In this document: one piece after another, positions 7,358-25,314 of the stretch
Position numbering within the stretch: the stretch's first letter is position 1
Layout: the number at the start of each line of letters is the position of its first letter
Origin: Catenulispora pinistramenti
GTDB taxonomy: Bacteria > Actinomycetota > Actinomycetes > Streptomycetales > Catenulisporaceae
NCBI RefSeq assembly: GCF_018274385.1
Contig: NZ_JAAFYZ010000058.1
Span: 1 to 50,245, forward strand
DNA length: 50,245 nucleotides
Direction: 5' to 3'
Notes under the pieces: generated by a model
The model's database searches: none
The model's input: only the letters and a program-made list of their open reading frames with translations
What the model was told of the DNA's origin: nothing
Made by a program: the position numbers and the translations under genes

Positions 7358-8329
7358 TCAGCCGTTCTTGGCCAGGACCTGCAGTTGGCTGTACGGGCCG
7401 TTGAACACGTCCTGGTCACCGGGCTCCGAACCGGAGTCCGCGTACTGCCAGAAGGTGTAGAAGCCCCAGCCCGGGGGCAGCGGGCCGCCGCCGGAAGCCA
7501 CGTAGTTCGCGATGAACAGCGGGTCGTAGTTCGCGAAGTTCGTGTCCTGGCTGGTGCAGGTGTTCCACCAGTCGGTGGTCGAGTAGATCACCGGGTAGAC
7601 GCCCGTGCGCGCCGCGTACTCGTTCACGAAGTCCCAGATCCAGCTGCTCATCTGGCTTCCGCTCAGGCCGTAGCACTCCGAGCCGTAGGGGTTGTACTCG
7701 ATGTCGAGCATCCCGGGCAGGGTGAGGCCGTCGGAGGACCAGCCGCCGCCGTTGTTGACGAAGTAGTCGGCCTGGGCGGCGCCGCTGGAGTCGCTGGGGT
7801 TGGCGAAGTGGTACGAGCCCCGGATCAGCCCCTGGTCGTAGGGGCCGACGTACTGGTTGTAGAAGTCCGGGTTCGTGTAATACGTGCCCTCGGTCGCCTT
7901 CGTGTAGGAGAAGTCGATGTTGGGCGCGATACTGGCCCAGTCCAGGTTGCCCTGGTACGCGCTGACGTCGATGCCCGGCAGTTGCGGCACCGAGGCCAGG
8001 GGCGCCGGCCGCACGGCGGGCTGTGCGGCGGGCTCGTGGGCCTTGATAGTGGAACCCAGGTAGTCCAACTGGGGGTGGGTCGCCACCGTCGGGTGCACCG
8101 GCGTGTTGTGCCGGGTGGTGTCGACCTTGACCAGCTGACCGGTGACGGTGCGCGCGTAGCCCGGGTGCGGGTTGGCGTGCGGGGCCGGGACGCCGGCCGG
8201 GGCGCTCGGCTTGGTGGTGCCGCTGGCCGAGGCGCTGCCGGCGGTGGCCGGCAGGAGCAGCGCGCCGGCCGTGGCGACCGCCAGGGCCAGCAGGGCCGCG
8301 CGGCGGGTTCCGTGGGTGGATGAGGACAT
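7358..8329 (-). CDS. Secreted GH25 family muramidase (lysozyme), paralog A
   Basis: Glycoside hydrolase family 25, predicted to cut the MurNAc-GlcNAc bond of peptidoglycan outside the cell. The protein has 323 residues. Residues 1-36 are a signal peptide, 37-115 a Pro/Ala-rich linker, and the catalytic barrel runs from PGIDVSAYQGN to the C-terminus. The active-site acids are visible: D121 (GIDVSAYQG) and the DxE pair D209/E211 (LDIEYNPYG). Two Cys residues (in SECYG and WNTCTS) may form a disulfide. It follows its paralog at 8343-9098 by only 13 bases, so the two are one operon and a tandem duplication. The extra linker distinguishes it from paralog B. GGAGCC (within AGGAGCCGAC) lies about 5 bases before the ATG at 8329. 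Confidence 0.95.
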   Translation of the reverse strand: MSSSTHGTRRAALLALAVATAGALLLPATAGSASASGTTKPSAPAGVPAPHANPHPGYARTVTGQLVKVDTTRHNTPVHPTVATHPQLDYLGSTIKAHEPAAQPAVRPAPLASVPQLPGIDVSAYQGNLDWASIAPNIDFSYTKATEGTYYTNPDFYNQYVGPYDQGLIRGSYHFANPSDSSGAAQADYFVNNGGGWSSDGLTLPGMLDIEYNPYGSECYGLSGSQMSSWIWDFVNEYAARTGVYPVIYSTTDWWNTCTSQDTNFANYDPLFIANYVASGGGPLPPGWGFYTFWQYADSGSEPGDQDVFNGPYSQLQVLAKNG

Positions 8330-8342
8330 CGTCGGCTCCTGC

Positions 8343-9098
8343 TCAGCCGTTGGCCAGCGCTTGGACGCGGCTGTAGTCGCCGTTGAAGACGTCCTGGTCG
8401 CCGGCCATGGAGCCGGAGTCGGCGTACTGCCAGATGGTGTAGAAGCCCCAGCCGGCCGGCAGCGTGCCCGCCGAGCCGTTGTAGTTGGCGATCCACAGCG
8501 GGTCGTTGTTGGCGAACGCGCCGGAGTTGCCGGTGCAGGTCTTCCACCAGTCGGTGGTGGTGTAGATGACGGCCCAGCGGCTGGTCTTGGCGTGGTACTC
8601 GTTGACGAACGAGGACACCCAGCTGACCATCGAGCTCTGGCTCAGGCCGTAGCACTCGGCGCCGTAGGGGTTGTACTCGATGTCCAGCGCGCCCGGCAGG
8701 GTCTTGCCGTCCCTGGACCAGCCGCCGCCGTGCGCGACGAAGTAGTCGGCCTGCGCGGCGCCGGTGGAGCCGTTCGGGATCGCGAAGGTGTACGCGCCGC
8801 GGATCAGGCCGGCGTTGTAGGCGCCGTTGTACTGCTGGGCGAAGTACGGGTTGGTGTAGTACGTGCCCTCGGTCGCCTTCGAGTACGAGAACTGCGCGCC
8901 GGCGGACTTGGTCGCCGCCCAGTCCACGTTGCCCTGGTGCGACGACACGTCGTCGCCATGGGGGTTGCCGGCCGCCTGGGCCATGCCCGGCACCAGCGCG
9001 GCGGCGCCGGCCAGGGTGCCGACGGCGAGCGCGGCCAGCGCGGTGCGCCGCTTGCGGGGGGTGCTGTGCCGCGGGCCGGACGACGAGATCTTGACCAT
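8343..9098 (-). CDS. Secreted GH25 family muramidase (lysozyme), paralog B
   Basis: First gene of the lysozyme operon, 251 residues. An Arg-rich signal peptide (about 1-42, ending GMAQAA) leads directly into a GH25 barrel with no linker. Catalytic acids are D50 (GDDVSSHQG) and D139/E141 (LDIEYNPYG). The barrel is closely similar to the downstream gene (shared ATEGTYYTNP, GAAQADYF, DIEYNPYG, DQDVFNG). The start at 9098 is chosen over an upstream ATG at 9215 because AGGAG lies 8 bases before it and a standard signal peptide follows. A promoter-like pair with an overlapping palindrome lies about 140 bases upstream. Predicted role: cleavage of glycan strands in the cell wall, either its own or that of other bacteria. 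Confidence 0.95.
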   Translation of the reverse strand: MVKISSSGPRHSTPRKRRTALAALAVGTLAGAAALVPGMAQAAGNPHGDDVSSHQGNVDWAATKSAGAQFSYSKATEGTYYTNPYFAQQYNGAYNAGLIRGAYTFAIPNGSTGAAQADYFVAHGGGWSRDGKTLPGALDIEYNPYGAECYGLSQSSMVSWVSSFVNEYHAKTSRWAVIYTTTDWWKTCTGNSGAFANNDPLWIANYNGSAGTLPAGWGFYTIWQYADSGSMAGDQDVFNGDYSRVQALANG

Positions 9099-9242: not shown

Positions 9243-9278
9243 AATGTAGCGGGAAAACAACAACAGTCAACGACTGTT
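9243..9278 (-). promoter_or_regulatory. Promoter and operator palindrome of the GH25 operon
   Basis: Read on the minus strand: -35 TTGACT (9270-9265), 16-base spacer, -10 TACATT (9248-9243). A perfect 17-base inverted repeat, AACAGTC-AAC-GACTGTT (9262-9278), covers the -35 box and touches the stop codon of the upstream kinase gene. A repressor bound there would block the polymerase. Confidence 0.6.
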
Positions 9279-10588
9279 TATGAGAATTCTGCGAACTGGT
9301 GGTCGGCACGGGTGAACGCCGCGTGTCCGGCGGCCGCCGCGGCCGCCCCCAGCACCTGCCGCGCGGCCAGCCAGGTGGCCCCGGCCGCGCCGTCCGCGGC
9401 CAGCCCGACCGGCGAGTCCGGCCAGCGCCGGCCGATCGCCGCGGTCACCGCCTGGAACACCGGCGAGCGGCTGACCAGCACCGAACCGCCCAGCACCACC
9501 GGCTCCCCGGCGACCGGCCCGACCCCGGCCAGACTCTCCACCAGCACCTCGGCCGCCGCGGCGACGATCCGCGCCGCCGCCGGGTCGCCGAGCTCGTACG
9601 CCGCCATCACCAGCGGCGCGAGCTTGGACAGCGCCACCGTCGGCTGCGCCGTCACCGCGCGGACCAGCTCGGCGGCGCGGCGCCGGCCGCGCAGCGTGAA
9701 GCCCTCGCCGATGCTGGCCGGGATCGGGAGCCGGCCAGTGGCGGCCGGGCGAACGGGGGCTGACGGGTGTTGGACGGTTGGGGTTTGGGGGATTTGGGTT
9801 TCGGTGGGAACGGACGACCGGTTCGGCGCGCGGTCGGGTGCGGCGCCGGCCGCGCTGCGGGACGTGCCGCCGGGGGTGCTACGGCCGGAGGTAGTAGTCG
9901 TGCGCGGGCCGGCATCGGATTCCGAGACTCGGCTCGGAGCCGTTTCGGGACCGGAGTCCGGATCAGCGACCGGATCGGCGTCCGGATCAGCCTCCTGACC
10001 GTGCTCCGGGTGGTGATCCAGCAATTGCGCGAGCACCGACGTGGCCAACTCGGCCATCGGCTCGCGGCCGTCGGCGGCGGCGATCGCGGCCCGGGCGGCC
10101 TGGCGTCCGATCCAGAAGCCGGAGCCCTCATCGCCCAGCAGCCAGCCGTAGCCGTCGCGGAAGCGGGCCGGCAGGCGGTCGTGCATGCGGGCGGCGACGG
10201 CGCCGGTGCCGGAGACCAGCAGCGTCCCGTCCGGGGCGGGGGTGCCGGCGGCGAAGGAGACGGTCACATCCGAGAGCACCTGCACCGGACAGGTCAGCCC
10301 GACATCGGCCCAGGCCTGCTCCAGCACCCGCGGCGCGCGCGGATCGGCCATCAGGGTACTGACTCCGGCCAGCCCCATCACGCACGCGCCGACCCGCTCA
10401 CCGGGCATCCCGCCGAGCGCGGCCTTCAACGCCGCGACGATGTTCGCGATGGCGGCCCCGGCCCCCGACACGGTCGGATTCCCGCCGCCGGCCCGCCCGG
10501 TACCCAGCGTGCGCCCGTCGACGGTGGCCAGCACGGCGCGCGAATGCGAACCTCCGACGTCGAGCCCCACCACGCACGGGTCCGCCAT
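9278..10588 (-). CDS. BadF/BadG-family amino-sugar kinase (GlcNAc/MurNAc kinase-like) with disordered insert
   Basis: ASKHA-fold ATPase of the BadF/BadG/BcrA/BcrD family, 436 residues. This family includes N-acetylglucosamine kinases and MurK, a MurNAc/GlcNAc kinase. Visible motifs: phosphate-binding GLDVGGSHSR (8-17), the likely catalytic Asp in VLSDVTVSF (D107), the second phosphate loop VSGTGA (125-130) and the conserved GDEGSGFWIGRQ (152-163). Residues about 193-300 are an Asp/Pro/Ser/Thr-rich low-complexity insert between the two lobes that the paralog at 11145-12236 lacks. ATG 10588 is preceded by GGAGG at a long spacing of 11. A possible promoter is TTGAGT-N17-CAAGAT near 10640-10670. 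Context of muramidases, amidases and a peptide importer supports a role in recycling wall amino sugars; the substrate is inferred. Confidence 0.85.
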   Translation of the reverse strand: MADPCVVGLDVGGSHSRAVLATVDGRTLGTGRAGGGNPTVSGAGAAIANIVAALKAALGGMPGERVGACVMGLAGVSTLMADPRAPRVLEQAWADVGLTCPVQVLSDVTVSFAAGTPAPDGTLLVSGTGAVAARMHDRLPARFRDGYGWLLGDEGSGFWIGRQAARAAIAAADGREPMAELATSVLAQLLDHHPEHGQEADPDADPVADPDSGPETAPSRVSESDAGPRTTTTSGRSTPGGTSRSAAGAAPDRAPNRSSVPTETQIPQTPTVQHPSAPVRPAATGRLPIPASIGEGFTLRGRRRAAELVRAVTAQPTVALSKLAPLVMAAYELGDPAAARIVAAAAEVLVESLAGVGPVAGEPVVLGGSVLVSRSPVFQAVTAAIGRRWPDSPVGLAADGAAGATWLAARQVLGAAAAAAGHAAFTRADHQFAEFS

Positions 10589-11144
10589 GGATGCCGCCAC
10601 CTCCGACCTCGCCCCGGCGGGCACCGGATGTGCCCTGTGGCGTTGTGTGGGATCTTGCCAGAGTGCGCACCACAACTCAACGCCATCGCAGACCCTTGAC
10701 GGCGCCCGCCCGATCTGGGACGCTCCCCGTTTGAGTGGCGCTATGGCAGGTGGACAGGGGCGGCGCCGGGGCCCGGGCGGAACCGGCGGGGGACGGATCG
10801 GCGCTTCTGGGTTGATGTGGATTCTTGCCGCAGGTCCGGCCGGACCAGGTGCGACGGCGGCGGGTGGGGCGGGCCGGGCAGCGCTGCGCGGATCTGCTGA
10901 CCGCGACTGGCGGACCAGCTCAACGCGTAGAGGATCGGGGGTCGGCCGCTACTGCCGAGTCCCGAGCTGATCGGCTGAGCGCCTGCGGGCGTTCCGAGTG
11001 CGACCGGCTGGCCGGGCCCAGGGATCGCAGAGCGCTGTTATACCTCAGTGCCGATCGCCCGGCCGCCGCCCACTCCTGACAACCAGCCTCGGCCGCCGCC
11101 CACTCCTGACAACCAGCTGCCTGACAACCAGCCCCGGCCGCCGC
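10589..11144. other. Intergenic region without a gene
   Basis: The left part is the promoter and leader of the kinase gene at 9278-10588. The right end holds tandem repeats (11061-11165). Open frames on both strands lack ribosome sites and have atypical Arg/Gly-rich translations. I see no RNA gene here. Confidence 0.55.
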
Positions 11145-11165
11145 CTACTCCTGGCAACCAGCCCC
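11061..11165. repeat. About 30-bp tandem repeats at the 3' end of a kinase gene
   Basis: Units beginning GGCCGCCGCCCACTCCTGAC at 11061-11090 (30 bp), 11091-11135 (45 bp, with an internal 15-bp duplication of CTGACAACCAGC-like sequence) and 11136-11165 (30 bp, three changes). The last unit spans the stop codon (TAG, 11147-11145) and final codons of the kinase paralog; the others extend downstream of it. Confidence 0.85.
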
Positions 11166-12236
11166 GGCCCCCGCCGCCAACCGGGCATGCACCCCGGCGT
11201 CGATCCCCGGCTCCATGACCCGCGCCGCGAGCCAGGCCGCGCCCACCGCGCCCGGCGCCGCGATCAGCGGCGTCCCGCCGTGGTGCTCGGCCAGCCGCCG
11301 CTGTACCTCGGCGCCGATCGGGCCGGGCGCCGTCAGCAGCGAGCCCGCCAGGACCAGTGGCTCCTCGGAGTTGTCGCCGGTGAGGGCGGTCGCGGTGGCC
11401 ATCAGGAGGCTGACCGCGCGGTCCACGATGCGCTGCGCCACCCGGTCCCCGGCCGTCGCCGCCGCCGAGACCAGCGGGGCCAGTGCCGCCAGGGCGATCG
11501 GCGGGCCGTCGTAGACCGCGTCCCGCAGCGCCGCGATCTGCTCGCCGGTGGACTGCGGCACCACGTCGTCGGTCACCGTGGACAGGACCGCCCCGGCCAG
11601 CAGCGTCGGCTCGCCGCGGCCGTCCAGGGCCGCGAACACCGCGCGGACCGCCTGGCGCCCGATCCAGAACCCGGATCCGTCGTCGCCGACCAGCCAGCCG
11701 TTGCCGTCGATGCGGGCGGTGACCTCCTCGCCCTCGACGCGGGCGGCTATCGAGCCGACGCCGGCGATCAGGACCGAGCCGCTGGGGCGCGGGGTGCCGG
11801 CGGCGAAGGCGGTCACGGCGTCCGCGACCACCAGGACCGGACAGGTCAGCCCGGCGTCCACCCAGGTCTTGGCCAGTGCCTCGGCGCTGGAGCCGCGGGA
11901 GTAGCGCAGGATGCCGGCCGCGCCGACCACCACGCCGGCCACCGACGCCGGGGTGACCGTGCCCATCGCCTGCCTGACCGCGTCGCTCAGGTGCGCCACG
12001 ACGTCCGGGATCGGCAGCGCCGTCGGGTTCGCCAGTGCCGAGCGCCCGCGCCCGATCACCTCGCCCCCGACCGTCGCGACCACCGCCTCCACCAGCGTCG
12101 ACCCGGCCTCCACGCCCAGCACGACGCCGGTCCGCGCGGCCTGCCGCCGCGGCGCCGCCCCGGCGGCTGCGCGGTCGGGGCCCGCGGCCGGGACGGCCGG
12201 AGTCGGAGCCGAGGCGGCGGGGGAAGCGGACGGCAT
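11145..12236 (-). CDS. BadF/BadG-family kinase paralog with altered phosphate-binding motifs
   Basis: Paralog of the kinase at 9278-10588, 363 residues, with an Ala/Pro-rich N-terminal extension of about 35 residues. It retains the lobe-linking motif GDDGSGFWIGRQ, the catalytic-type Asp in VVADAVTAFAAGTP and the C-terminal VLAGSLL and GAVGAAWLA segments. The first phosphate loop, however, is GVEAGSTLV (the paralog has GLDVGGSHSR), so the usual Asp is Glu and one Gly is Ala; the second loop is AGVGS instead of SGTGA. It may have weak, changed or no kinase activity, or may sense a ligand. ATG 12236 has AGGAGG four bases upstream. It probably arose by duplication, although about 550 bases of repeats and non-coding DNA now separate the pair. 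Confidence 0.82.
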   Translation of the reverse strand: MPSASPAASAPTPAVPAAGPDRAAAGAAPRRQAARTGVVLGVEAGSTLVEAVVATVGGEVIGRGRSALANPTALPIPDVVAHLSDAVRQAMGTVTPASVAGVVVGAAGILRYSRGSSAEALAKTWVDAGLTCPVLVVADAVTAFAAGTPRPSGSVLIAGVGSIAARVEGEEVTARIDGNGWLVGDDGSGFWIGRQAVRAVFAALDGRGEPTLLAGAVLSTVTDDVVPQSTGEQIAALRDAVYDGPPIALAALAPLVSAAATAGDRVAQRIVDRAVSLLMATATALTGDNSEEPLVLAGSLLTAPGPIGAEVQRRLAEHHGGTPLIAAPGAVGAAWLAARVMEPGIDAGVHARLAAGAGAGCQE

Positions 12237-12448: not shown

Positions 12449-14560
12449 TCAGGACGTGGAGGCCACCACGTTCACATCGGCCGCGTTCACGAACGCCATC
12501 CGGTGGTTGTAGGTGATCAGGTAGTACTGCGTCGCACCCTTGAAGTCGGTCTGGTCCATGAACGCCGACCCGTCGATGTTGTAGGCGTTGAACCAGTCGC
12601 TCTGTAGCGGTTTGCCGTCGGTGACATAAGCCTGACCGGCGGCCAGCACGTACTTCGACGCGATCCGCTGCGAGCGCGGCACGCCGCCGTACCAGCTGGT
12701 GAACGCCGCCGGGTAGGCCGAGGCCTCCGGGAACGACTCGACGTACACCGGCACCGTCGCCTTGCCCGGCTTCGGCGTCACCGTCAGCGCCTTCACCGGC
12801 GCCGCGCTGACCGGCCCCAACTCGTTGTGGAACCACGCTTTCTGCCCGGCGTACCAGATCGCGATCCAGCCGCCGGGCGCCCGGTCGGCGACCACGAACT
12901 CCTGCCCGCTGCTGGCCTTGTCACCCCAGTCGTCGGCCTGGATGGTGCCGGCCGAGCCGTCGGTGTGCAGGTAGGGATCGGACAGCAGAGGCGCGCTGTC
13001 ACTGGGCGCCGTGCGCAGGAACACGAAGCTTGTGGGCTGCTTCGGCATGTCCTTGTAGTAGCTGGCCGGGCAGGGCCCGTTCAGGTTCGGCCACTCGGCG
13101 CCGTGGTACGGCCCCGGGAACGGCGTCAGGTCCTGGATGTTCTGGCAGCCGGAGACCACCTGCTGGTTCAGCTGGAAGACCGGGTTGACGGCCACCACGT
13201 TCGACGACGGCGGGGCGTCGGCGTGGATCGGCGCGCCGAGCAGGTCCATGAAGTGCGACCAGTTCCAGTACGGTCCCGGGTCCCAGTGCTGCGAGGCGAT
13301 GCTGCCGTCGCTGCTGCCGGGGATGTTGTCGTGCCCGAGGATGTGCTGGCGGTCCAACGGGATGTCGTACTTCGCGGCCAGGTAGCGGACCAGCGCGGCC
13401 GTCGAGCGGTACATCGCCTCGCTGTACCAGGTGGCCCCGTCGATCGCGTAGCCCTCCTGCTCGATGCCGACCGAGTGCTGGTAGAACGACTCGTTGCCGC
13501 TGTCCCAGGCGATGTCCTCGGTCGGCAGCAGCTGGGTGACGTGGCCGTCCTCGGAGCGCACCTCGTAGTTCGCCGAGGCGAAGTACGACGGGTCGTGGAA
13601 CAGCCACAGCGTGCCGTCGTTGGTCTCTTCGTTGTCGTGCAGCGTGATGTAGCGGATGTCGGTGGTGACCGGACGGTTCGCCGGGTCGTGATCCCCGTAG
13701 TCCGACTTGTCGGTCGCGCTGAGCTGGTAGAAGCCGCTGGGGGAGTAGCTGCAGTCCAGGTTGGCCGGGCACTCCGGGGCGCTGAGCTGGGACGGGTCGT
13801 GGACCGGGTCGGCCGGCGGGACCACGCTGACCAGGCCGAGCCGCTGGGCGCCGTTCGGGTCGTCGAAGGCCCACGGCTGCGCGGGCAGCGCCAGGGTCTG
13901 GCCGTCCTGGGTGGTGGCCGACTGGCCGGTGCGGATCGTGGTGAAGACGTCGTCGGTGAAGACCTGCGCGACCTTCGTCTCCGAGGCCTCGGAGTAGCGC
14001 GCGACGCCGACGGTCCAGCCCGGCAGGTCCAGCGCCGGGGGCAGGACGCCGTGGTTGTACTGCTTCTCATAGGACGCCAGCAGCGCGGCCCCGGCGCGGA
14101 TGTTCTGGACGTCGTTCGTCTCGGCCGTGGTCAGGTCGACTCCGGCCAGCGCCGCGGCCTTCGCGGCGGTGTGCAGCGACGGCGCGTTCAGCAGATCCGG
14201 GCTGCGGAAGGTGCTGGTGAAACCGGCGCTGTTCAGCTCGGCCTGGGTCAGGTTGGTCAGGTTCATCGGGCCGTAGCCGGCCGAGAAACTGGGCTTGCCG
14301 CCGTGCGCCTCCCACATCGACTCGTTGTAGGACACGGACAGCAGGACCGGCAGCGGCACGCCGAACTCGGCGGCCGCCGCGGCGAACGCGGCCTGGCGCC
14401 CGGCCGGGTCGGCGGGGCTGGACGGGCCCGCCTTGGGACCGGCCATCGGGCTGCCGGCCGCGGCGGCGCTGTGCGCGGCCGGCACGACCGCGGCGCCGGC
14501 CGCCACCAGAGCGGTGGCGAGGACGGGAATCAGTGCTCTGCGCCTCGGGGGGCGTCTCAT
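12449..14560 (-). CDS. Secreted SLT-like / N-acetylmuramoyl-L-alanine amidase (Amidase_2) with SH3-like tail
   Basis: Exported cell-wall hydrolase of 703 residues. Order: signal peptide (1-35). Lytic-transglycosylase-like N-terminal domain (about 55-200) with SVSYNES (E80) and GYGPMNL (95-101), reminiscent of the ES...GxxGLMQ motifs of SLT enzymes. Amidase_2/PGRP domain (about 300-440) with zinc ligands inferred as H308 (ITLHDN), H410 (LGHDNIPG) and D427 (HWDPG) and general base E367 (GIEQEG). SH3b-like segment (about 508-585) and a C-terminal domain. Predicted to release stem peptides from MurNAc. It starts 18 bases after the stop of the OppF-like gene, with AAGGAG before the ATG, so it is the last gene of the importer operon. 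A paralog lies at 23503-25314. Confidence 0.92.
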   Translation of the reverse strand: MRRPPRRRALIPVLATALVAAGAAVVPAAHSAAAAGSPMAGPKAGPSSPADPAGRQAAFAAAAAEFGVPLPVLLSVSYNESMWEAHGGKPSFSAGYGPMNLTNLTQAELNSAGFTSTFRSPDLLNAPSLHTAAKAAALAGVDLTTAETNDVQNIRAGAALLASYEKQYNHGVLPPALDLPGWTVGVARYSEASETKVAQVFTDDVFTTIRTGQSATTQDGQTLALPAQPWAFDDPNGAQRLGLVSVVPPADPVHDPSQLSAPECPANLDCSYSPSGFYQLSATDKSDYGDHDPANRPVTTDIRYITLHDNEETNDGTLWLFHDPSYFASANYEVRSEDGHVTQLLPTEDIAWDSGNESFYQHSVGIEQEGYAIDGATWYSEAMYRSTAALVRYLAAKYDIPLDRQHILGHDNIPGSSDGSIASQHWDPGPYWNWSHFMDLLGAPIHADAPPSSNVVAVNPVFQLNQQVVSGCQNIQDLTPFPGPYHGAEWPNLNGPCPASYYKDMPKQPTSFVFLRTAPSDSAPLLSDPYLHTDGSAGTIQADDWGDKASSGQEFVVADRAPGGWIAIWYAGQKAWFHNELGPVSAAPVKALTVTPKPGKATVPVYVESFPEASAYPAAFTSWYGGVPRSQRIASKYVLAAGQAYVTDGKPLQSDWFNAYNIDGSAFMDQTDFKGATQYYLITYNHRMAFVNAADVNVVASTS

Positions 14561-14578: not shown

Positions 14579-15894
14579 TCAGGAGGGGGGAGCGGGAGCG
14601 TCGTTCTTTGATGCGATTGGTGCGTTCGATGCGATCGGTGCGTTCGGTGCGGCCACGCCGACCAGGGCGGCCGCGTGGCAGGCAGCGTGCCGCCCGCTCG
14701 AGGGCAGCGGCTTGGGGTCGACAGTCCGGCACTGCTCGGCCACGCCCAGCCGCTCGGCCTCACCGGAGGCCAGCAGCGGACAGCGCGGATGGAAGCGGCA
14801 GCCGAGCGGGATCGCGGCGGAGTCGGGCGTCTCGCCGGACAGGATCACCGGCTCCCGATCGGACTCGGCGACCACCGAAAGCAGAGCCTTGGTATAAGGG
14901 TGCTGAGGCTCGGTCAGGACCTCCTCGACGGTCCCGGTCTCCACGATCCGCCCCAGATACATCACCGCGACCCGGTCGGCGATGTTCCACGCCAGCCCCA
15001 AGTCGTGCGTGACGACCAGCGCCGACAACCCGGCCCCGGCGCGCAGATCCAGCATCAGCTTCAGGATCTCGCCGCGCACCGAGGCGTCCAGCGACGCCAC
15101 CGGCTCGTCGGCGACCAACACCTGCGGATCCAGCACCAACGCCCCGGCGATCACCACACGCTGCCGCTGCCCGCCGGAGAGCTCATGCGGATGCTGACCG
15201 ACGAACCGCTCGGGCGGACGCAGCCCGGCCCGCGACAGGGCGTCGGCGACCTTGGCCTTCTCATCGCGGAACTCGCCGAGCGCGGACTTGCCGTGGATAC
15301 GTAAGCCTTCAGCCACGGCCTCGTAGACACTGCGGCGCGGATTCAGCGCACCGGTCGGATCCTGCAACACCAACTGCACACCGCGCCGATACGCCTTCAA
15401 CGCCCGGGCCCGGTAGGACACCGGCTTGCCGTCCTGAAGCACCCGCCCGGCCGTCGGCACGACGAGCCCGGTGAGCGCACGAGCCAGCGTGGACTTGCCG
15501 CAGCCGGATTCGCCGACCAGCGCGACGATCTCGCCCTGCGCGATGTCCAGGTCGACGCCGTCCACGGCACGCGCCCGGCCCCGGCCGTGGCGGGATCGGA
15601 AGGTGACGTAGAGGTCGCGGACGGACAGAACGGGTGGCCGGGACTCACCCGCCGACGCCTGCACAGCACTTTCCGGCACGGTCTCGGCGACCGGCCCGGA
15701 ATCAGCTGCCTGCCGCTCAGTCGCTGGCTGCTCTGCCGCCGCACTTTCATCGACCTCTGCCTCAGCACCGGCCGAAACGCCTTGCGCCGCCAGCTCCGGC
15801 GCCGCTTCCTGCTCGGGCACCGCTTCGTGCTCCAGCCCCGCTTCGTCCCCTCCGAGGCGCGGCTCGCCGGTCGCTCCCATCTCCACCTCCGCGC

Positions 15895-15898: not shown

Positions 15899-16916
<1,018 letters not shown>

Positions 16917-16920
<4 letters not shown>

Positions 16921-18820: not shown

Positions 18821-20722
18821 CTACTCGCGTTCTTCGGCGCTCGCGGTGCGCCGCCGGCGCATCAGCACCAGGCCGCCGCCGCCCACGACCACCACGATCA
18901 CGACCACGATGCCGATGACCAGACCGGTGGAACTCGATGACGACTTCGACGAGGACCCCGAGGCCGCCGACGCGGCGGCGGGCTTGGCGGACCAGAAGGA
19001 CCAGTAGCCGTCCTGGCCCCAGTACACGCCCTTGGGCTGCGGCTGCTTGTCCCACGAGCCGATCACGTCGGACCGGTAGGCCTCCAGGACGTCCGGGTAG
19101 TACAGGACGTTGATGTAGGCGTCGGTGTAGAGCACCTGCTCCATCTGCTTGACGTCATCGGCGCGGGTCGCCGGGTCGTACTCGGTGATCTGCTTGGCGT
19201 ACAGCGCGTCGAAGTTCTTGTCGCAGAGGAAGTCGTCGGTGGCGCCGGTCTTGCCGGGGGCGCTGGGGCGGGTGGCGCAGGTCTGGATCGACAGCACGGC
19301 GTCCGGGTCCGGGTTCGCCGTCCAGCTGTCGAAGGCCAGGTCGAAGTTGCCGGCCACCTCGGTGTCGCCGAGCTTGCCCTGGTCCACCAGCGAGGTGGTG
19401 GTGGCGATGCCGACGGCCTTGAGGAATTCGGCGACGTAGGTCGCGTCCTGGGTGTCGTCGGGCCGGTTGGTCTCGCCCATCAGACGCAGGTTCAGCGGCT
19501 TGCCGTCGGGCATCGTCCGCATCCCGTCCGAGCCCTTCTTGAACCCGGCGGCGTCCAGCATCTGGTTGGCCTTGTCCGGGTCGTAGGTGTAGGCCGTCGA
19601 GGGGTCCGGACTCCAGTGATAGGTGGAGAACACCGGCGGGATGTAGCCGCTGCCGGTCGTGCCGTAGCCGCCGAGCGTCTTGGTGACCAGCGTCTTGGTG
19701 TCGATCGCGTACATCAGCGCCTGGCGGAACTGCTGGTTCTGCAACGCCGGGCTGCCGTCGCCGAACGCCTGCCCGGTCGCGGTGGTGGCGCCGGGGTTGA
19801 CCGCCAGCGCGTAGAAGCGCTTGCCGGGGGCGTCATTGGTGACGATGTCGGACTGGCCCTTCAGCGACTCGTACTGCGCCGGGGTCAGGCCGTCAACGAA
19901 GTCGATCTCACCCTTCTTCAGGGCCTCCACTTCGGAGTCGGCGTCCTTGTAGAACTTGAAGACCAGGTGGTCGAAGGCCGGCTTGCCGCGCCAGTAGTCC
20001 GGGTTGGCGTCCAGCGTCAGGTACTGGTCCTTCTGGTAGCCGGTGAGGATGAACGGACCGTCGCCGACCACCGGGAACTGGGTGTCGTTGTTGAAGGTGC
20101 CGATGTCCTTCACGTGCCCGGCCCAGATGTGCTCCGGCACGATCGGCACGTCCAGCGCCAGCATCGTGGACTGCGGCTGCTTCAAGGTGATGACCAGCTG
20201 GTTCCCGGTCGCCGTCACCTTGGCGAAGTTGGCGACGAAGTTGCCGTTCGCGGTGGCCGCGTCCGGGTTGGTCATCATCAGGTTGTAGGTCCAGGCCGCG
20301 TCCGCCGCGGTCACCGGCTGGCCGTCGGACCACTTCATCCCGTCGCGGATGGTGTAGGTCCAGGTCAGCTTGTCGGCCGAGGTGGTCCAGGAGGTCGCCA
20401 GCGCGCCGATCGGATGGTCGTCGGTCGGGTCGTAGTTGGTGAGGAAGTCGTACATCAGCCGGTGGATCTGGGTCGGCAGCGCGCGCTGGGCCAGGAACGG
20501 CGACAGCGAGTCGATGGTGCTGGTGACCCCGACGGTCAGGGTCTTGCCGCTGCTGGAAGCAGAGGCCGTATCCGCCTCGGAGTATGTGCTCTGGCTATGT
20601 GCGCCGCGCGCCTGCGCCTGCGCCGGACCGGACGCGGCGGCGGCCGGAGCGCTCAGCACCGCCGCCCCGGCCAGGGCCGCCGCGAGGGCGAAAGCACGTC
20701 GTCGGGGGTTTCGGAAAGGCAT
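18821..20722 (-). CDS. Peptide-binding protein (SBP family 5) with C-terminal membrane anchor
   Basis: Extracellular solute-binding protein family 5, 633 residues, first gene of the importer operon. Residues 1-30 are a signal peptide; the SBP_bac_5 fold runs from about 55 to 560 with typical segments (DSLSPFLAQRALPTQIHRLMYD, WSDGQPVTAADAAWTYNLM, ALMYAIDTKTLV). There is no lipobox cysteine after the signal peptide. Instead a Ser-rich linker and a hydrophobic helix (GLVIGIVVVIVVVVGGGGLVLM) followed by RRRR end the protein, so it is probably anchored through its C-terminus. ATG 20722 follows GAGGAT. The promoter is TTGACG-N17-CACACT. Predicted ligand: oligopeptides, possibly wall-derived. Confidence 0.92.
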   Translation of the reverse strand: MPFRNPRRRAFALAAALAGAAVLSAPAAAASGPAQAQARGAHSQSTYSEADTASASSSGKTLTVGVTSTIDSLSPFLAQRALPTQIHRLMYDFLTNYDPTDDHPIGALATSWTTSADKLTWTYTIRDGMKWSDGQPVTAADAAWTYNLMMTNPDAATANGNFVANFAKVTATGNQLVITLKQPQSTMLALDVPIVPEHIWAGHVKDIGTFNNDTQFPVVGDGPFILTGYQKDQYLTLDANPDYWRGKPAFDHLVFKFYKDADSEVEALKKGEIDFVDGLTPAQYESLKGQSDIVTNDAPGKRFYALAVNPGATTATGQAFGDGSPALQNQQFRQALMYAIDTKTLVTKTLGGYGTTGSGYIPPVFSTYHWSPDPSTAYTYDPDKANQMLDAAGFKKGSDGMRTMPDGKPLNLRLMGETNRPDDTQDATYVAEFLKAVGIATTTSLVDQGKLGDTEVAGNFDLAFDSWTANPDPDAVLSIQTCATRPSAPGKTGATDDFLCDKNFDALYAKQITEYDPATRADDVKQMEQVLYTDAYINVLYYPDVLEAYRSDVIGSWDKQPQPKGVYWGQDGYWSFWSAKPAAASAASGSSSKSSSSSTGLVIGIVVVIVVVVGGGGLVLMRRRRTASAEERE

Positions 20723-20785
20723 GGCATCCTCACAGCGATATCGGTGCAGCCCTGCGGGGCGGGTGTCCGCGTAAGTCGTGCGCCG

Positions 20786-20814
20786 AGTGTGGCAATTCCT
20801 TGAGGAGTCGTCAA
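20786..20814 (-). promoter_or_regulatory. Promoter of the peptide-importer operon, TTGACG-N17-CACACT
   Basis: Minus strand: -35 TTGACG (20814-20809), 17-base spacer, -10 CACACT (20791-20786), inside the block TGCCACACTC. The block and spacing are the same as in the promoter of the C39 peptidase gene at 23351-23379. The expected leader is about 55 bases. Confidence 0.6.
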
Positions 20815-20957
20815 GAGTCCACGTATTGTTCGGCCAAGAAACCACATATTCTGCTGATGGCGAGGGACGTCGGCCTTCCCTCGCGGGCGCGCCCCACTAC
20901 GCTGGGGGCAGCGTGCGTCCGCACGCTGCCCGCCCCGGCCAGTGGAGTCCCGAGGAG

Positions 20958-21764
20958 ATGAAGGAAGAACTGCTCGACGCGGTCCTCCCCGAGGAGCGCC
21001 GCCTGCGCATCGCCGCGCAGCTGCGCCGCGACACCCGAGTGCGGGTCGAGGACCTGGCCGCCCGTTACGGCGTCTCCGGCGAGACGATCCGCCGCGACCT
21101 GCAGGTCCTGGAGGAACGCGGCATCTTGCGCCGGGTCTACGGCGGAGCCGTCGCGCAGGAGACCCGGGGCTGGGAACCCGGCGCCGACGAGCGGGCCATC
21201 GCCCGGCTGGACCCCAAGCGGGCCATCGCCGCCGCGGTCGCCGCGCTGGTCGAACCGGGGGAGACGCTGGTCTTCGACCTGGGCACCACGGTCGCCGAGA
21301 CGGCCCGCGCGCTGCCCGCCACGTTCAGCGGCCGGGCGCTGTGCGTCGGGCTGCCGACCGCCGCCGAACTGGCCGGCCGCGAGGGCGTCGAGGTGCACCT
21401 GGCCGGCGGTCAGGTGCGGCGCGACGACCTGTCCTGCGTCGGCCCGGGCTCGGAGAAGTTCTTCGAGCGCTTCTTCGCCGACCGGGCCTTCATCGCGGCC
21501 TCCGGCGTGCACCTCAAGGCCGGGGTGACCAGCGACCGGCTGGAGGAGATCCCGGTCCGGCAGGCGATCCTGGCCCAGGCCCAGGCCGTCTACGTGCTCG
21601 CCGACGGCGCCAAGCTCGGCCGGGTCGCGGTCGGCCGGGTGTGCCCGCTGTCCGCGGTCACCGCGATCGTCACCGACTCCGGCGCCGACCCCGAGGCGGT
21701 GCGCGCGCTGGAGCAGAGCGGGACCCGGGTGATCGTCGCGCCGACCGGCTCCGAGCTCGACTGA
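20958..21764 (+). CDS. DeoR-family transcriptional regulator
   Basis: DeoR/GlpR-type repressor of 268 residues. The N-terminal helix-turn-helix (about 13-65) carries the family hallmark VSGETIRRDLQVLEERG, followed by RRVYGGAV. The C-terminal DeoRC sensor fold has LVFDLGTTVAETARAL and the phosphate-loop-like segments usual for binding phosphorylated sugars. It is transcribed divergently from the peptide-importer operon, with 235 bases between starts, so control of that operon is likely. Family knowledge points to a sugar phosphate as effector, which would fit the amino-sugar kinases nearby. ATG 20958 follows GGAG at a spacing of ten; a longer in-frame start at 20778 would run through the shared promoter region and is rejected. 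Confidence 0.92.
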   Translation: MKEELLDAVLPEERRLRIAAQLRRDTRVRVEDLAARYGVSGETIRRDLQVLEERGILRRVYGGAVAQETRGWEPGADERAIARLDPKRAIAAAVAALVEPGETLVFDLGTTVAETARALPATFSGRALCVGLPTAAELAGREGVEVHLAGGQVRRDDLSCVGPGSEKFFERFFADRAFIAASGVHLKAGVTSDRLEEIPVRQAILAQAQAVYVLADGAKLGRVAVGRVCPLSAVTAIVTDSGADPEAVRALEQSGTRVIVAPTGSELD

Positions 21765-21893: not shown

Positions 21894-23300
21894 TCACCAG
21901 GTCGGGTTGTTCGGATCCGCGACGGGCGGCAGCGCCAGGTCGTGCGGCTTGTAGACGTAGGCCACGCCGCCGGAGCCGGAGCCGGTGGTGCCGTCGGTGC
22001 GGGTCCAGTATGTCCGCAGCCAGATGTTCTCCAGCTGGCCGCGCTGGTAGACGTGCCGTACCGCCGCGTCCGAGGGTGAGAACGGGTCGTCCACGATGAA
22101 GTCCCCGGTCGCGGTGAACCCGACGACCACCATCAGGTGCCCGGCGGTGCCGTAGCCGGAACCGGTCAGCTCGCCGTTGTCGAAGGCCACTGAGATCGCC
22201 ACCGGGATCCCGGCCTTGACCAGCGTCTCCAGGGCGTCGACCGAGGGCAGCTGGACGATCTCGGCGTCCAGCCCGTAGTGCGCGGCGTAGGCGGCGTTGA
22301 AGGGCCAGTTGCCGGTGCCCCGGTAGGCGTAGTCATACGTCGAGCGGGCCGCGTAGTCCACGCTCGGGTCGGCGTAGGACGGGTCCACCCACGCCAGGTC
22401 CGCCGCGCTCGGCCCGTCGCCCCAGTACTCGGCGATCATCTCGCTGGACGTCGGGCTGCACCAGGCGTCCCCGCCCCCGCCGTACTGGTTGTACTGCCCG
22501 ACGTGGATCTGCTGCGAGTATCGCGGAACCGCCAGCTCGGTGCCCTCGGCGCCGCCGAGCGGGCTCGGGGTGACGCCGGTGCGGGCCGGCACGGCCGAGG
22601 CGAACGCGCCGAGCTGCCACAACCGCGGCGAGGCGGTGCTGGTCGGCAGCCGGTACAGCGTGGCCCGCAGCTGGTAGGCCTGGATCGAGTGCCCGGCCGC
22701 GGCATTGAAGGTGTCGGTGTCGACCTGGCCGTAGACCCCGGCCGAAGGGCTGGTGGAGGTGCGGTCGATGTCGGTGTCGCCGGAGGCCCAGTCGCCCATG
22801 TCCAGCCAGCCGGTCTGGTGCCCGTCCTCCATCGTCGCGTTCAGCTCGACCTCCAGCCAGGTGCCGGCCGGGGTCTGCGCGTCCCAGGACGAGACCAGCT
22901 CGGTGGCACCGAATCCCGGCGTGTAGGACGGCGAGGTCCAGGTGCTGAAGGCGTAGGTTTTGGTGGTGTGAAGGTAAGGGTCCTTATAGCGCGTGCTGCC
23001 GACGGTGCTGGAGATGGCGATGCCCTGCCGGTCGCCGGCCAGGGCCGTCACCCCGGCCGCGGTGCCGGCCTGGAAGTCGGCCTGGGTGGTCCACTTGTGG
23101 AAGGTGACGCGCTCGCCGGCGGTCGGCGCGGCCCCGGCGGGGACGGTCCGGGCTGTCGCCGGAGCCGGGCTGGTGCCGGGAGCGGCGGCCGCCCCGGTCC
23201 CGGTGCCCGCGATGCCGGTCGCGGTCAGCACTGCCGCGCAGGTCAGGGCCCTCGTCGAGCGCAGTGTGCGCCGGGTGCGAGGTGCGTGGGCGCTGCGCAT
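21894..23300 (-). CDS. Secreted C39-like cysteine peptidase family protein
   Basis: Exported protein of 468 residues. A signal peptide (about 1-40) precedes a beta-rich N-terminal domain (about 62-225, with repeated W/Y and the segments AFSTWTSPSYTPGFGATELVSSWDAQTPAGTWLEV cut across several strands). The C-terminal domain (about 253-430) is peptidase_C39-like with the triad C281 (GDAWCSPTS), H388 (GTAGHLMVVVGF) and D404 (FIVDDPF). Members of this family cut peptides, including cell-wall cross-bridges; the substrate here is inferred. GGAGG lies five bases before the ATG. It is divergent from the amidase gene at 23503 and shares its promoter pattern with the peptide-importer operon. Confidence 0.88.
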   Translation of the reverse strand: MRSAHAPRTRRTLRSTRALTCAAVLTATGIAGTGTGAAAAPGTSPAPATARTVPAGAAPTAGERVTFHKWTTQADFQAGTAAGVTALAGDRQGIAISSTVGSTRYKDPYLHTTKTYAFSTWTSPSYTPGFGATELVSSWDAQTPAGTWLEVELNATMEDGHQTGWLDMGDWASGDTDIDRTSTSPSAGVYGQVDTDTFNAAAGHSIQAYQLRATLYRLPTSTASPRLWQLGAFASAVPARTGVTPSPLGGAEGTELAVPRYSQQIHVGQYNQYGGGGDAWCSPTSSEMIAEYWGDGPSAADLAWVDPSYADPSVDYAARSTYDYAYRGTGNWPFNAAYAAHYGLDAEIVQLPSVDALETLVKAGIPVAISVAFDNGELTGSGYGTAGHLMVVVGFTATGDFIVDDPFSPSDAAVRHVYQRGQLENIWLRTYWTRTDGTTGSGSGGVAYVYKPHDLALPPVADPNNPTW

Positions 23301-23350
23301 GACTGCCTCCGGATGTTCCTCGGCGGTGCTGGGGCCCTCCCCGAACCGGG

Positions 23351-23379
23351 AGTGTGGCAGTCACCCCAGCACCCGTCAA
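23351..23379 (-). promoter_or_regulatory. Promoter of the C39 peptidase gene, TTGACG-N17-CACACT
   Basis: Minus strand: -35 TTGACG (23379-23374), 17-base spacer, -10 CACACT (23356-23351) within TGCCACACTC. The hexamers, spacing and ten-base block match the importer-operon promoter at 20786-20814, while most of the spacer differs. The expected leader is about 45 bases. Confidence 0.6.
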
Positions 23380-23502
23380 GAATCATCTTGGTTTCTTGTT
23401 GATTTTGCGTGACAAACCGCGGTGCCGGCCGCACCATGTCCGAGGAGTCGATCCGGACTCTGATACCCCCACCCCACGATGTCTGGACGGTGTTAGCGAC
23501 AG

Positions 23503-25314
23503 ATGATGAGACGGGATACGAGCCGAGCCCGTGGTGCGCGCCGGCGCGGGGCAGCGCTGGCGCTGGCCGCCGCGGCGCTGCTCACGTTCGGCCTGAGCGG
23601 CGCTCCGGCCCGGGCCGGGACGGTCGGCGGCGGCAGTGTCAACGCGGCCTTCGCCGATGCGGCGCACGCCTACGGGGTACCGCAGCAGGTGCTGGAATCG
23701 GTCTGCTACCTGGAGGGCCGGCTCAGCGCGCACAGCGGTCAGCCCAGCATCGACAACGGCTACGGCTGCATGAACCTGGTGAAGAACGACAAGACCGACA
23801 CCCTGGACCAGGCGGCGAAGCTGACCGGGCTCAGTGTCAGTGCCCTGCAACACGACACGGCCGCCAACATCCGCGGCGGCGCGGCGGTGCTGCGGGCCGC
23901 GGCGCTGACCCTGGCGCCGAAGCTCCCGGCGACGCTGGCCGGCTGGTACGGGCCGATCGCCGCCTACAGCCACGCCTCCTCGCGCTCGGTGGCCGGCATG
24001 TACGCCGACGCGGCGTTCCAGCTGATCCAGACGGGCTTCAGCGGCACGGCCGACGACGGCTCCCAGGTGACCCTGGCGCCGCAGGCGGTCATGCCGGACA
24101 AGTCCAAGCTGGACTCCGTGCCGCTGGCGCCGGCGGCGCTGCCGGCCGGCTGCACGCAGGACAGCAACGTCGACTACCCGTCGGCCGTGGACTGCGTGGT
24201 GCCCACGACGTATGACTGCAACACGGTCAGCGGCGCGTGCACCTACCAGAGCTCGAACCGGCCGACGAGCTTCGCCCTGTACGACGTGACCATCCACGAC
24301 ATCGAGGGCACCGCCGCCGACGCGATCAGCACGTTCCAGGACATCAACAGCGGCGTCAGCGTGCACTACGTCGTCGACAGCGACGGCACCGTCTACCAGA
24401 CGCTCAGAGAGAAGGACATCGCCTACCACGCGGGCAACTTCTGGTACAACGAGCACGCCGTGGGCATCGAGCACGCGGGCATCGACGCCACCGGCTACCA
24501 GTGGTACAACGCCACCGAGTACCTGGCCTCGGCCAAGCTGACCGCATACCTGCTGAACAAGTACAACATCCCGCTGGACCACGCCCACATCAACTCGCAT
24601 GGCACCACCCCGTCGCCGACCGTCGGCACTTCGCCGAACCACGTCGACCCGGGCAAGTACTGGCTGTGGGACTACTACTTCGGGCTGATCCACTCCCTGG
24701 GCGTCGCCTACCCGACCGGGAACACCCCGGCCGCCGGTCTGTTCCGGGTCGACCCGAGCAGCGACCAGGCGCCGGACGGCCCGAACGGGACCGAGACGAC
24801 GGCCAACAACAGCTTCTTCACCCTCTACACCGGTCCCAGTACCAAGGACGCGGTGATCCCCGGCGCGCCGGGCACCGATCCGACGGACGAGACCACGAAC
24901 GTCGAGACCCAGATGCCGTACTACTCCCTGGCCTCCCAGCCGGACCAGGCCGGGACCGGGATGACCATGTACGAGATCTGGTACGGCGAGAACGACCAGC
25001 TCGGCAACTCCACGCCGAGCTACAGCGCGGACGCGAAGAAGGCGTGGCTGGCGGTACCGGCAGGTTCGGCGGTGCCCGTGCACTCCTACGTGGTGAGCCT
25101 GAAGCCGAGCACCGCCGGTGCGACGATCGGCGTCTACGGCCGGCCGACCACCGACGCCTCCGACATCATCGGCACCGCCCCGACCGGCTCGCTGTGGGCC
25201 GCGCCGAAGTCGGTGTTCGAGGACGGGACGAAGAACCTGTGGTTCGGGATCGACTACAACCACCGCGAGGCTTGGGTGCCCAGCTCCGAGGTGACGGTCA
25301 TCGATTGGTACTGA
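23503..25314 (+). CDS. Secreted SLT-like / N-acetylmuramoyl-L-alanine amidase (Amidase_2), second paralog
   Basis: Exported hydrolase of 603 residues with the same layout as the amidase at 12449-14560. Signal peptide about 1-39; SLT-like N-terminal domain (about 45-180) with ESVCYLEG (E71) and NGYGCMNL (85-92); Amidase_2 domain (about 255-400) with inferred zinc ligands H265 (TIHDIEG), H366 (NSHGTTP) and D382 (HVDPG) and base E323 (GIEHAG). The C-terminal 200 residues resemble the SH3-like tail of the paralog (shared IWY and YNHR-AWV segments). Predicted to act on peptidoglycan outside the cell. The ATG at 23503 lacks a clear ribosome site; a second ATG follows directly. It is divergent from the C39 peptidase gene. 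Confidence 0.92.
   Translation: MMRRDTSRARGARRRGAALALAAAALLTFGLSGAPARAGTVGGGSVNAAFADAAHAYGVPQQVLESVCYLEGRLSAHSGQPSIDNGYGCMNLVKNDKTDTLDQAAKLTGLSVSALQHDTAANIRGGAAVLRAAALTLAPKLPATLAGWYGPIAAYSHASSRSVAGMYADAAFQLIQTGFSGTADDGSQVTLAPQAVMPDKSKLDSVPLAPAALPAGCTQDSNVDYPSAVDCVVPTTYDCNTVSGACTYQSSNRPTSFALYDVTIHDIEGTAADAISTFQDINSGVSVHYVVDSDGTVYQTLREKDIAYHAGNFWYNEHAVGIEHAGIDATGYQWYNATEYLASAKLTAYLLNKYNIPLDHAHINSHGTTPSPTVGTSPNHVDPGKYWLWDYYFGLIHSLGVAYPTGNTPAAGLFRVDPSSDQAPDGPNGTETTANNSFFTLYTGPSTKDAVIPGAPGTDPTDETTNVETQMPYYSLASQPDQAGTGMTMYEIWYGENDQLGNSTPSYSADAKKAWLAVPAGSAVPVHSYVVSLKPSTAGATIGVYGRPTTDASDIIGTAPTGSLWAAPKSVFEDGTKNLWFGIDYNHREAWVPSSEVTVIDWY

What the first reader, a model, noticed from the sequence alone, without database searches (positions are those of the whole stretch)
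7358..25314. A candidate peptidoglycan breakdown and recycling region
Within 18 kb there are two secreted GH25 muramidases, two secreted SLT-like/amidase proteins, a secreted C39-like peptidase, a complete peptide ABC importer, two BadF/BadG amino-sugar kinases and a DeoR regulator. Together these could cut glycan and peptide bonds, import the peptides and phosphorylate the amino sugars. One amidase is the last gene of the importer operon, a direct physical link between wall cleavage and uptake. A dedicated sugar importer and MurQ-type etherase are not seen, so the pathway is incomplete within the window.
Basis: partly seen in the sequence, partly recalled or inferred. Interest (0 to 1): 0.7.

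Follow-up and report, generated by a model that had tools for sequence, protein, structure and literature searches.

The report
Wall-fragment import and kinase regulon
In the soil bacterium Catenulispora a gene cluster that looks controlled by one regulator combines peptide import, cell-wall cutting and sugar phosphorylation; it is probably a second wall-scavenging system beside the usual recycling genes, which sit elsewhere in the genome.

Summary
The genes are real: two GH25 muramidases, two secreted Amidase_2 proteins, a C39-like protein, a complete SBP5/Opp importer, two BadF kinases and a DeoR regulator, in a Catenulispora genome. Across 10 Catenulispora genomes kin1 is in 10, the SBP in 9, DeoR in 9, the operon amidase in 7. 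An operator-like motif (BCAAGANNCCACR) occurs 9 times in the 11.46 Mb genome; four lie here, two at the DeoR/importer divergent promoter and two upstream of kin2, conserved in 8 of 8 relatives that could be examined; a sister genus has the core motif beside its BadF genes. So importer, amidase, DeoR and both kinases look like one regulon; the GH25 pair, C39 and second amidase carry no exact site. The canonical recycling island (NagZ, MurR, MurQ, its own SBP5 importer, AnmK) lies elsewhere, so this is a parallel system, not the recycling locus. In one sister-genus genome the island and the DeoR–BadF cluster lie about 2 kb apart, and neither sister genome with MurQ has AnmK, suggesting BadF kinases make MurNAc-6P there. 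Against: one Catenulispora genome keeps the cluster without MurQ or AnmK; substrates, and DeoR binding, are untested. New variant of a known kind.

The parts
20958..21764 (+). DeoR-family regulator gene (start codon chosen by ortholog ends)
   Evidence: HTH_DeoR 58.1 and DeoRC 138.3 bits; 9 of 10 Catenulispora genomes; start
20723..20957 (.). divergent promoter region between SBP and DeoR, conserved in patches
   Evidence: alignment of 9 genomes
20811..20823 (+). operator-like site TCAAGAGTCCACG
   Evidence: exact motif; conserved in 8 of 8 relatives held
20834..20846 (+). operator-like site CCAAGAAACCACA, 23 bp from the first
   Evidence: exact motif; conserved in 8 of 8 relatives held, one mismatch in G013 and G007
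18821..20722 (-). solute-binding protein, SBP_bac_5, with C-terminal membrane segment
   Evidence: 294.3 bits; 9 of 10 genomes
17753..18817 (-). permease B (BPD_transp_1)
   Evidence: 129.2 bits; starts 3 bp after SBP
16917..17756 (-). permease C (BPD_transp_1, OppC_N)
   Evidence: 91.9 bits; GTGA overlap with permease B
15895..16920 (-). ATPase D (ABC_tran, oligo_HPY)
   Evidence: GTGA overlap
14579..15898 (-). ATPase F (ABC_tran, oligo_HPY)
   Evidence: GTGA overlap
12449..14560 (-). ami1: secreted protein with SLT-like N-terminal domain and Amidase_2 domain
   Evidence: Amidase_2 86.8 bits; SLT-like weak; 7 of 10 genomes
11145..12236 (-). kin1: BadF/NAGK-family kinase
   Evidence: BcrAD_BadFG 86.4 bits; PDB hexokinase 1.5e-22, MurNAc/GlcNAc kinase 1.1e-17; 10 of 10 genomes
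10816..10828 (-). operator-like site GCAAGAATCCACA upstream of kin2
   Evidence: exact motif; 8 of 8 relatives, one mismatch in G005
10646..10658 (-). operator-like site GCAAGATCCCACA upstream of kin2
   Evidence: exact motif; 8 of 8 relatives
9278..10588 (-). kin2: BadF/NAGK-family kinase with a variable low-complexity insert
   Evidence: BcrAD_BadFG 69 bits; NagK_SO3507 70 bits, cut-off 370
9243..9278 (-). terminator-like hairpin with T-run (9278-9262) overlapping promoter-like hexamers (9270-9243), between kin2 and GH25a
   Evidence: consensus scan, terminators not above shuffles; near-invariant in 7 genomes
8343..9098 (-). GH25a muramidase (neighbour, probably separate unit)
   Evidence: 175.8 bits; PDB 6zm8 muramidase 1.7e-78
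7358..8329 (-). GH25b muramidase, 13 bp after GH25a
   Evidence: 155.8 bits; spacing
21894..23300 (-). secreted C39-like protein (neighbour, present in 6 of the 9 genomes testable)
   Evidence: 90.8 bits
23503..25314 (+). ami2: second SLT-like/Amidase_2 protein (neighbour)
   Evidence: 87.7 bits; linked in 9 of 10 genomes

Best explanation
A regulon for scavenging cell-wall fragments, running beside the genome's canonical MurQ/AnmK recycling island. Secreted ami1, probably helped by the neighbouring GH25 enzymes, frees stem peptides and short glycans from wall material. The SBP5/Opp importer takes up the peptides, or possibly whole muropeptides. In the cytosol kin1 and kin2 phosphorylate free amino sugars: GlcNAc and probably MurNAc, the reducing-end product of muramidases, whereas AnmK handles the anhydro form. 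The phosphosugars would pass to MurQ and the GlcNAc pathway encoded elsewhere. DeoR, presumably sensing a phosphosugar, represses the importer-ami1-kin1 operon, kin2 and itself through CAAGANNCCACR sites. Shown from sequence: gene families, linkage, operon junctions, shared conserved sites. Inferred: the substrates, that DeoR is the protein binding the sites, the direction and signal of regulation, and that kin1 is on the importer transcript.
For: Operon-like junctions from SBP to ami1. Block conserved in Catenulispora: kin1 10 of 10, SBP 9 of 10, DeoR 9 of 10, ami1 7 of 10. Motif BCAAGANNCCACR: 4 of 9 genome matches in G000, 3 of 7 in G005 and 4 of 13 in G011 lie in this cluster, reversed-pattern control 25, 18 and 23; sites upstream of kin2 were not used to find the motif and are conserved in 8 of 8 relatives; the off-cluster matches share no detectable flanking DNA between the three genomes. 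Sister genus: same DeoR with M55 D-aminopeptidase, BadF kinase(s) and GlcD-like oxidase, about 2 kb from a NagZ-MurR-MurQ-SBP5 importer island in G004, core motif between them. Neither G003 nor G004 has AnmK although both have MurQ. Of 20 class loci of related kinases fetched, 16 have an RpiR gene beside the kinase; NgcE confirmed by profile in one of them and beside the own paralog. MurK specificity positions partly permissive (PMC10465942 passages).
Against: G012 keeps the cluster but lacks MurQ and AnmK. ami1 is missing in G005, G007 and G013, and G007 also lacks the SBP. The PDB relatives of the SBP bind peptides, nickel, haem or chitin oligosaccharides, so its cargo cannot be read off. 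kin1 and kin2 score about 70 bits on the GlcNAc kinase model, far below its cut-off of 370, and kin1's best solved relative is a hexokinase. An Asp stands where MurK has Ser133, and 8zo3, named a MurNAc/GlcNAc kinase, has Asn where the paper expects a small residue, so the residue test does not decide. The GH25 pair carries no exact site. The linkage to DeoR was not found outside the family. In the window alone the one-mismatch motif is only mildly enriched: 6 against 2.5 expected, 1 of 100 shuffles as high.
Confidence: 0.55

Rival explanations
1. The importer is a general oligopeptide importer for nitrogen and carbon supply; the amidase and kinases are neighbours for other reasons.
For: SBP family 5 importers are mostly peptide importers, and the best solved match is a peptide-binding protein, 9pl3. 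The canonical MurQ island has its own SBP5 importer. The regulon amidase is missing in 3 of 10 genomes.
Against: The importer shares conserved operator-like sites with kin2, and kin1 follows it in 9 of the 9 genomes in which the ATPase F-kin1 (or ATPase F-ami1-kin1) junction is held besides the window.
Confidence: 0.2
2. The cluster serves GlcNAc or chitin-derived sugars, or hexoses: the kinases are GlcNAc or broad hexose kinases and the SBP5 importer carries oligosaccharides.
For: Related kinases stand beside RpiR and, where profiled, NgcE genes. A chitin-oligosaccharide-binding protein is among the SBP's solved relatives (1zty, 5.7e-24). kin1's best solved relative is a broad hexokinase by name. 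G012 has the cluster without MurQ.
Against: The co-transcribed hydrolase is an amidase, not a chitinase. In the sister genus the same DeoR and BadF genes lie with a D-aminopeptidase and, in G004, beside MurQ. A separate NgcE-kinase operon exists in the own genome.
Confidence: 0.17
3. A developmental autolysis and signalling module: the secreted enzymes take part in dismantling the mycelium, and the importer and DeoR read the resulting fragments as a signal rather than as food.
For: Several secreted wall enzymes lie together. In Streptomyces, wall breakdown releases GlcNAc that acts as a developmental checkpoint (start of abstract of PMC12680351).
Against: No developmental gene was recognised inside the regulon; ami1 and C39 are absent at the locus in 3 genomes; two catabolic-type kinases fit poorly with a pure sensor.
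Confidence: 0.08

Closest known systems
Bacillus subtilis murQRP-amiE-nagZ-ybbC cluster (PMC5061867: section 6 and passages seen)
   Same: Links a secreted amidase with MurNAc uptake and phosphorylation under one regulator region.
   Different: There MurP (a PTS) imports and phosphorylates the sugar, the regulator is MurR (RpiR type) and MurQ is in the cluster; here an Opp-type ABC importer, BadF kinases and DeoR, no MurQ.
Tannerella forsythia murTKQ operon and MurK (PMC10465942: abstract and passages)
   Same: A kinase of the same superfamily as the MurNAc kinase step.
   Different: MurK is linked to MurQ and a MurNAc transporter; kin1 and kin2 are not linked to MurQ in the window, and their MurNAc activity is untested.
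YejBEF-YepA muropeptide ABC importer of Agrobacterium (PMC9790009: search listing and start of abstract only)
   Same: An ABC importer with a peptide-type architecture used for muropeptides (family placement recalled).
   Different: No amidase or kinase partner was seen in the listing; other phylum; no sequence comparison made here.
NagZ-MurR-MurQ-SBP5 importer-AnmK island of Catenulispora itself
   Same: Also an SBP5 importer with wall-salvage genes.
   Different: Another locus; its SBP is 26% identical to the window's; RpiR-type regulator; no exact CAAGANNCCACR site in the held stretches.
BadF kinase beside RpiR and NgcE genes in other actinobacteria, and beside NgcE on own contig C56
   Same: Same kinase family, about 35-54% identical over matched stretches.
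   Different: Linked to a GlcNAc/diacetylchitobiose importer, not to an Opp importer and amidase.

Membership tests
MurNAc recycling (murQ) operon | MurQ etherase gene in the cluster | tested here: not met
   TIGR00274 finds MurQ on contig C250, not on the window contig
MurNAc recycling (murQ) operon | MurR/RpiR-type regulator | tested here: not met
   The regulator is HTH_DeoR + DeoRC
Oligopeptide (Opp/Dpp) ABC importer | SBP_bac_5 protein, two permeases, two oligo_HPY ATPases | tested here: met
   All five found in operon-like order
Muropeptide ABC importer | Binds and imports muropeptides | not testable with these tools
   SBP relatives have mixed ligands
GlcNAc kinase (NagK_SO3507) | Curated model cut-off | tested here: not met
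   71.6 and 70 bits, cut-off 370
BadF/BadG/BcrA/BcrD ATPase family | Pfam gathering score | tested here: met
   86.4 and 69 bits, cut-off 31.5
MurNAc kinase (MurK) | Room for the lactyl ether: small residue before the catalytic Asp, no Asp at I69, small S133-P134-L135 | tested here: inconclusive
   By eye and the translations: Ala or Ser before the Asp; Leu or Ser at 69; Asp-Gly-Asn or Asp-Gly-Tyr at 133-135. Criteria from PMC10465942 passages
MurNAc kinase (MurK) | Kinase activity on MurNAc | not testable with these tools
   Only the genomic argument from the sister genus
Zn amidase, Amidase_2/AmpD type | Pfam cut-off and conserved metal ligands and Glu | tested here: met
   86.8 and 87.7 bits, cut-off 26; H308, H410, D427, E367 invariant in 19 rows (their AmpD roles recalled)
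SLT/GH23 lytic transglycosylase domain | Significant profile or fold match with the catalytic Glu | tested here: inconclusive
   E80 and GYGxMxL invariant; Pfam 17.5 bits below 21.3; PDB profile E 0.25-1.3; Foldseek E 0.15 at best
GH25 muramidase | Pfam cut-off and close solved relatives | tested here: met
   175.8 and 155.8 bits; GH25a to 6zm8 1.7e-78 and 1jfx 1.1e-66 (GH25b not searched in PDB)
One DeoR regulon | Shared, conserved sites at the member promoters | tested here: met
   Two sites at DeoR/SBP and two at kin2, each in 8 of 8 relatives held
One DeoR regulon | DeoR binds these sites and changes expression | not testable with these tools
   No binding or expression data

The most novel reading that the evidence does not exclude
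A second, DeoR-controlled wall-fragment salvage route in actinobacteria: an Opp-type importer brings in wall peptides or muropeptides freed by an amidase encoded in the same operon, and a pair of BadF kinases acts as MurNAc kinases for muramidase- and amidase-type (reducing-end) fragments, complementing AnmK in most Catenulispora and standing in for it in the sister genus. That would give a candidate answer to how actinomycetes without MurP obtain MurNAc-6P.
Probability: 0.27. Interest if true: 0.66.

Novelty: new variant of a known kind. Interest (0 to 1): 0.46.

Why it matters
Streptomyces coelicolor recycles MurNAc through MurQ although no MurP ortholog was found (PMC5061867, section 6), and a 2026 preprint calls the ways mycobacteria recycle MurNAc largely unclear (PMC13041923, passage). 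Which transporters and kinases serve wall recycling in actinobacteria is therefore open. This work names two SBP5-type importers and a kinase pair, with a compact candidate regulon and predicted operators, that deletion and enzyme assays can test directly.

Tried and rejected
Rejected: that the window holds the genome's recycling locus; MurQ and AnmK are on other contigs. Rejected: that the DeoR-BadF pairing is class-wide; of 296 class genomes only 4 besides the own one have a DeoR match at E up to 1e-60, none with BadF beside it; in these class searches at most 8 or 7 candidates per genome were scored, so weaker relatives may be missed. Rejected as evidence: the full-length ami1 model (pLDDT 49.5). 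The N-terminal-domain model (pLDDT 69.8) gave only weak lytic-transglycosylase matches. Not found: further regulon members; the other exact motif matches in G000, G005 and G011 share no detectable flanking DNA between these genomes. One-mismatch sites were not searched genome-wide.

Left open: whether the GH25 pair is read from the kin2 promoter. The conserved hairpin, T-run and promoter-like hexamers speak against it, but terminator-like sites in the region were not above shuffles (3 against 3.8). In the kinase tree the group printed as 'sister' was mislabelled by my script (it also took in the class rows), so only the kin1 and kin2 groups are used; 5 rows were in no group. A first gathering of kinase sequences missed many rows and was replaced.

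Full report
What is there. The window is one contig (C533) of an 11.46 Mb genome in 671 contigs. The nearest named record is Catenulispora pinisilvae NH11, 98% identical over the operon amidase. On the minus strand the order is SBP5, permease B, permease C, ATPase D, ATPase F, ami1, kin1, kin2, GH25a, GH25b. DeoR is divergent from the SBP gene; beyond it lie a C39-like gene and a second SLT-like/amidase gene, ami2. Permease B starts 3 bp after the SBP gene; permease C, ATPase D and ATPase F each start with a GTG overlapping the previous stop (GTGA); ami1 starts 18 bp after ATPase F behind AAGGAG; kin1 starts 212 bp after ami1 (start codons chosen by eye).

Is the linkage more than chance? Among 10 Catenulispora genomes (own included), kin1 orthologs are in 10, the SBP in 9, DeoR in 9, and ami1 at 83% identity or more in 7. 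DeoR, importer genes and kin1 share one contig in 8 (G000, G005, G006, G007, G010, G011, G012, G013); in G008 and G009, both fragmented, the block is split over contigs. The GH25 pair follows kin2 in all 7 genomes whose held sequence reaches that far (G000, G005, G006, G010, G011, G012, G013). ami1 is missing in G005, G007 and G013, and the same three lack C39 between DeoR and ami2; C39 was not looked for elsewhere in them, and G009 could not be tested. G007 also lacks the SBP and the first half of permease B. The kin1-kin2 gap holds unrelated genes in G006 and G010, so kin2 is unlikely to be a plain extension of the importer operon.

Regulation. The DeoR/SBP gap is conserved in patches in 9 genomes, with two copies of CAAGANNCCAC. 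The core CAAGANNCCACR also occurs, exact, twice upstream of kin2, a region not used to find it. Both places are conserved in 8 of 8 relatives whose sequence covers them; single mismatches occur at one site in G013, G007 (DeoR/SBP) and G005 (kin2). In the sister genus the core lies between the conserved parts of M55 and BadF in G003 and G004, and between the two BadF genes in G003. Genome-wide, BCAAGANNCCACR occurs 9 times in G000 (4 here), 7 in G005 (3 here) and 13 in G011 (4 here); the reversed pattern, a control, gives 25, 18 and 23. The remaining matches share no detectable flanking DNA between the three genomes. At the genome's own rate, two sites in the 559-bp stretch upstream of kin2 have P about 1e-7, a post hoc figure. 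Within the window, with one mismatch allowed, there are 6 matches against 2.5 expected, and 1 of 100 shuffles reaches 6. No exact core was found in 41 other loci, about 667 kb, among them MurQ islands. That DeoR binds these sites is an inference. The GH25 pair lies behind a near-invariant hairpin with T-run and promoter-like hexamers in 7 genomes, so it is probably a separate unit, though the terminator scan was not above shuffles.

The wider genome. MurQ is on contig C250 (295.9 bits; the TIGR00274 cut-off is 302, passed by 1 of 14 family genomes); the G005 ortholog passes the PRK05441 subfamily cut-off, 365 against 168 bits. In G005, G006, G011 and G013 it lies in an island NagZ, beta-lactamase-like, RpiR/MurR, MurQ, SBP5 importer, AnmK; in G005 an LD-carboxypeptidase gene follows. 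In the own genome C250 carries NagZ to murQ and ends there, and AnmK is on C228. That island's SBP is 26% identical to the window's. A NgcE gene (563 bits, cut-off 400) with its own BadF kinase lies on C56.

The sister genus. In G004, held as one contig, the same DeoR (about 60% identical) overlaps the end of an M55 D-aminopeptidase gene, which is divergent from a BadF kinase and a GlcD-like FAD oxidase. The oxidase lies about 2 kb from the last importer gene of the MurQ island. G003 has the same genes with two BadF kinases on a short contig, and its MurQ island on another. Neither has AnmK, though both have MurQ; AnmK passes the cut-off in 7 of 14 family genomes, all Catenulispora. MurQ needs MurNAc-6P, so the neighbouring BadF kinase is the likeliest source there; this is inference, since MurP and other kinases were not searched. 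G001 and G002 lack MurQ, kin1-type kinases, DeoR and M55 at the thresholds used. G012 goes against the reading: it has the cluster but neither MurQ nor AnmK.

The kinases. kin1 best matches Sulfolobus hexokinase (2e2n, 1.5e-22; organism name recalled), a MurNAc/GlcNAc kinase (8zo3, 1.1e-17) and NAGK. kin1 and kin2 score 71.6 and 70 bits on NagK_SO3507, cut-off 370. In 296 class genomes, 62 (own included) have relatives at E up to 1e-35. Of 20 loci fetched, from 20 of the 61 other genomes, 16 have an RpiR gene beside the kinase; NgcE was confirmed by profile in one of these, L196, and beside the own paralog. In a tree of 47 rows kin1 groups with the first kinase of G003 (100/100), while the place of kin2 relative to the sister genus's other kinases is unresolved. 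Against the MurK specificity residues in PMC10465942 (abstract and passages), read by eye, two positions are permissive and the third, an Asp, is ambiguous; and 8zo3 itself has Asn at one of them.

The wall enzymes. GH25a is closest to the muramidase 6zm8 (1.7e-78) and to 1jfx. ami1, its paralogs and ami2 (19 rows) share an invariant Glu and GYGxMxL in the N-terminal domain, and invariant His, His, Asp and Glu in the amidase domain. The SLT assignment stays weak.

Reading. Best supported is a regulon of importer, amidase and two amino-sugar-type kinases for wall-fragment scavenging, parallel to the MurQ/AnmK island; I put it at 0.55. Substrates, DeoR binding and the direction of regulation are untested. 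Wall salvage itself is known. In the papers listed by my searches I saw no description of this DeoR/Opp/amidase/BadF arrangement; that speaks for those listings only.

Noticed in passing
L139-L142 (G005, G011, G013, G006); own contigs C250 and C228: A canonical wall-recycling island in Catenulispora pairs MurQ divergently with a second SBP5-type importer followed by AnmK: a candidate muropeptide importer for actinobacteria.
   Followed up: partly
L087 (G007), 4700-5411: G007 lacks the SBP gene and the first half of permease B while the DeoR promoter sites remain: a natural deletion or an assembly fault (870 contigs, 6% contamination).
   Followed up: no
12449-14560 and 21894-23300: ami1 and the C39-like gene are absent at this locus in the same three genomes (G005, G007, G013), which suggests they are gained or lost together.
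   Followed up: partly
9278-10588: kin2 has a low-complexity insert in mid-protein that varies strongly in length between species and is largely missing in G011.
   Followed up: no
L097 (G006) 529-3656 and L094 (G010) 7699-9144: Unrelated genes sit between kin1 and kin2, different ones in the two species.
   Followed up: no
G000:C637:22919-24934 (L102): A second ami1-like gene, 49% identical, away from any importer or kinase in the 20 kb read.
   Followed up: partly
600-4001 and 43869-47150: Two large SARP/AfsR-like regulator genes (label by eye from the translations) near the two ends of the window, on opposite strands.
   Followed up: no
27235-28224: A secreted Peptidase_A4-family protein (83.9 bits), conserved as a neighbour in several relatives.
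   Followed up: no
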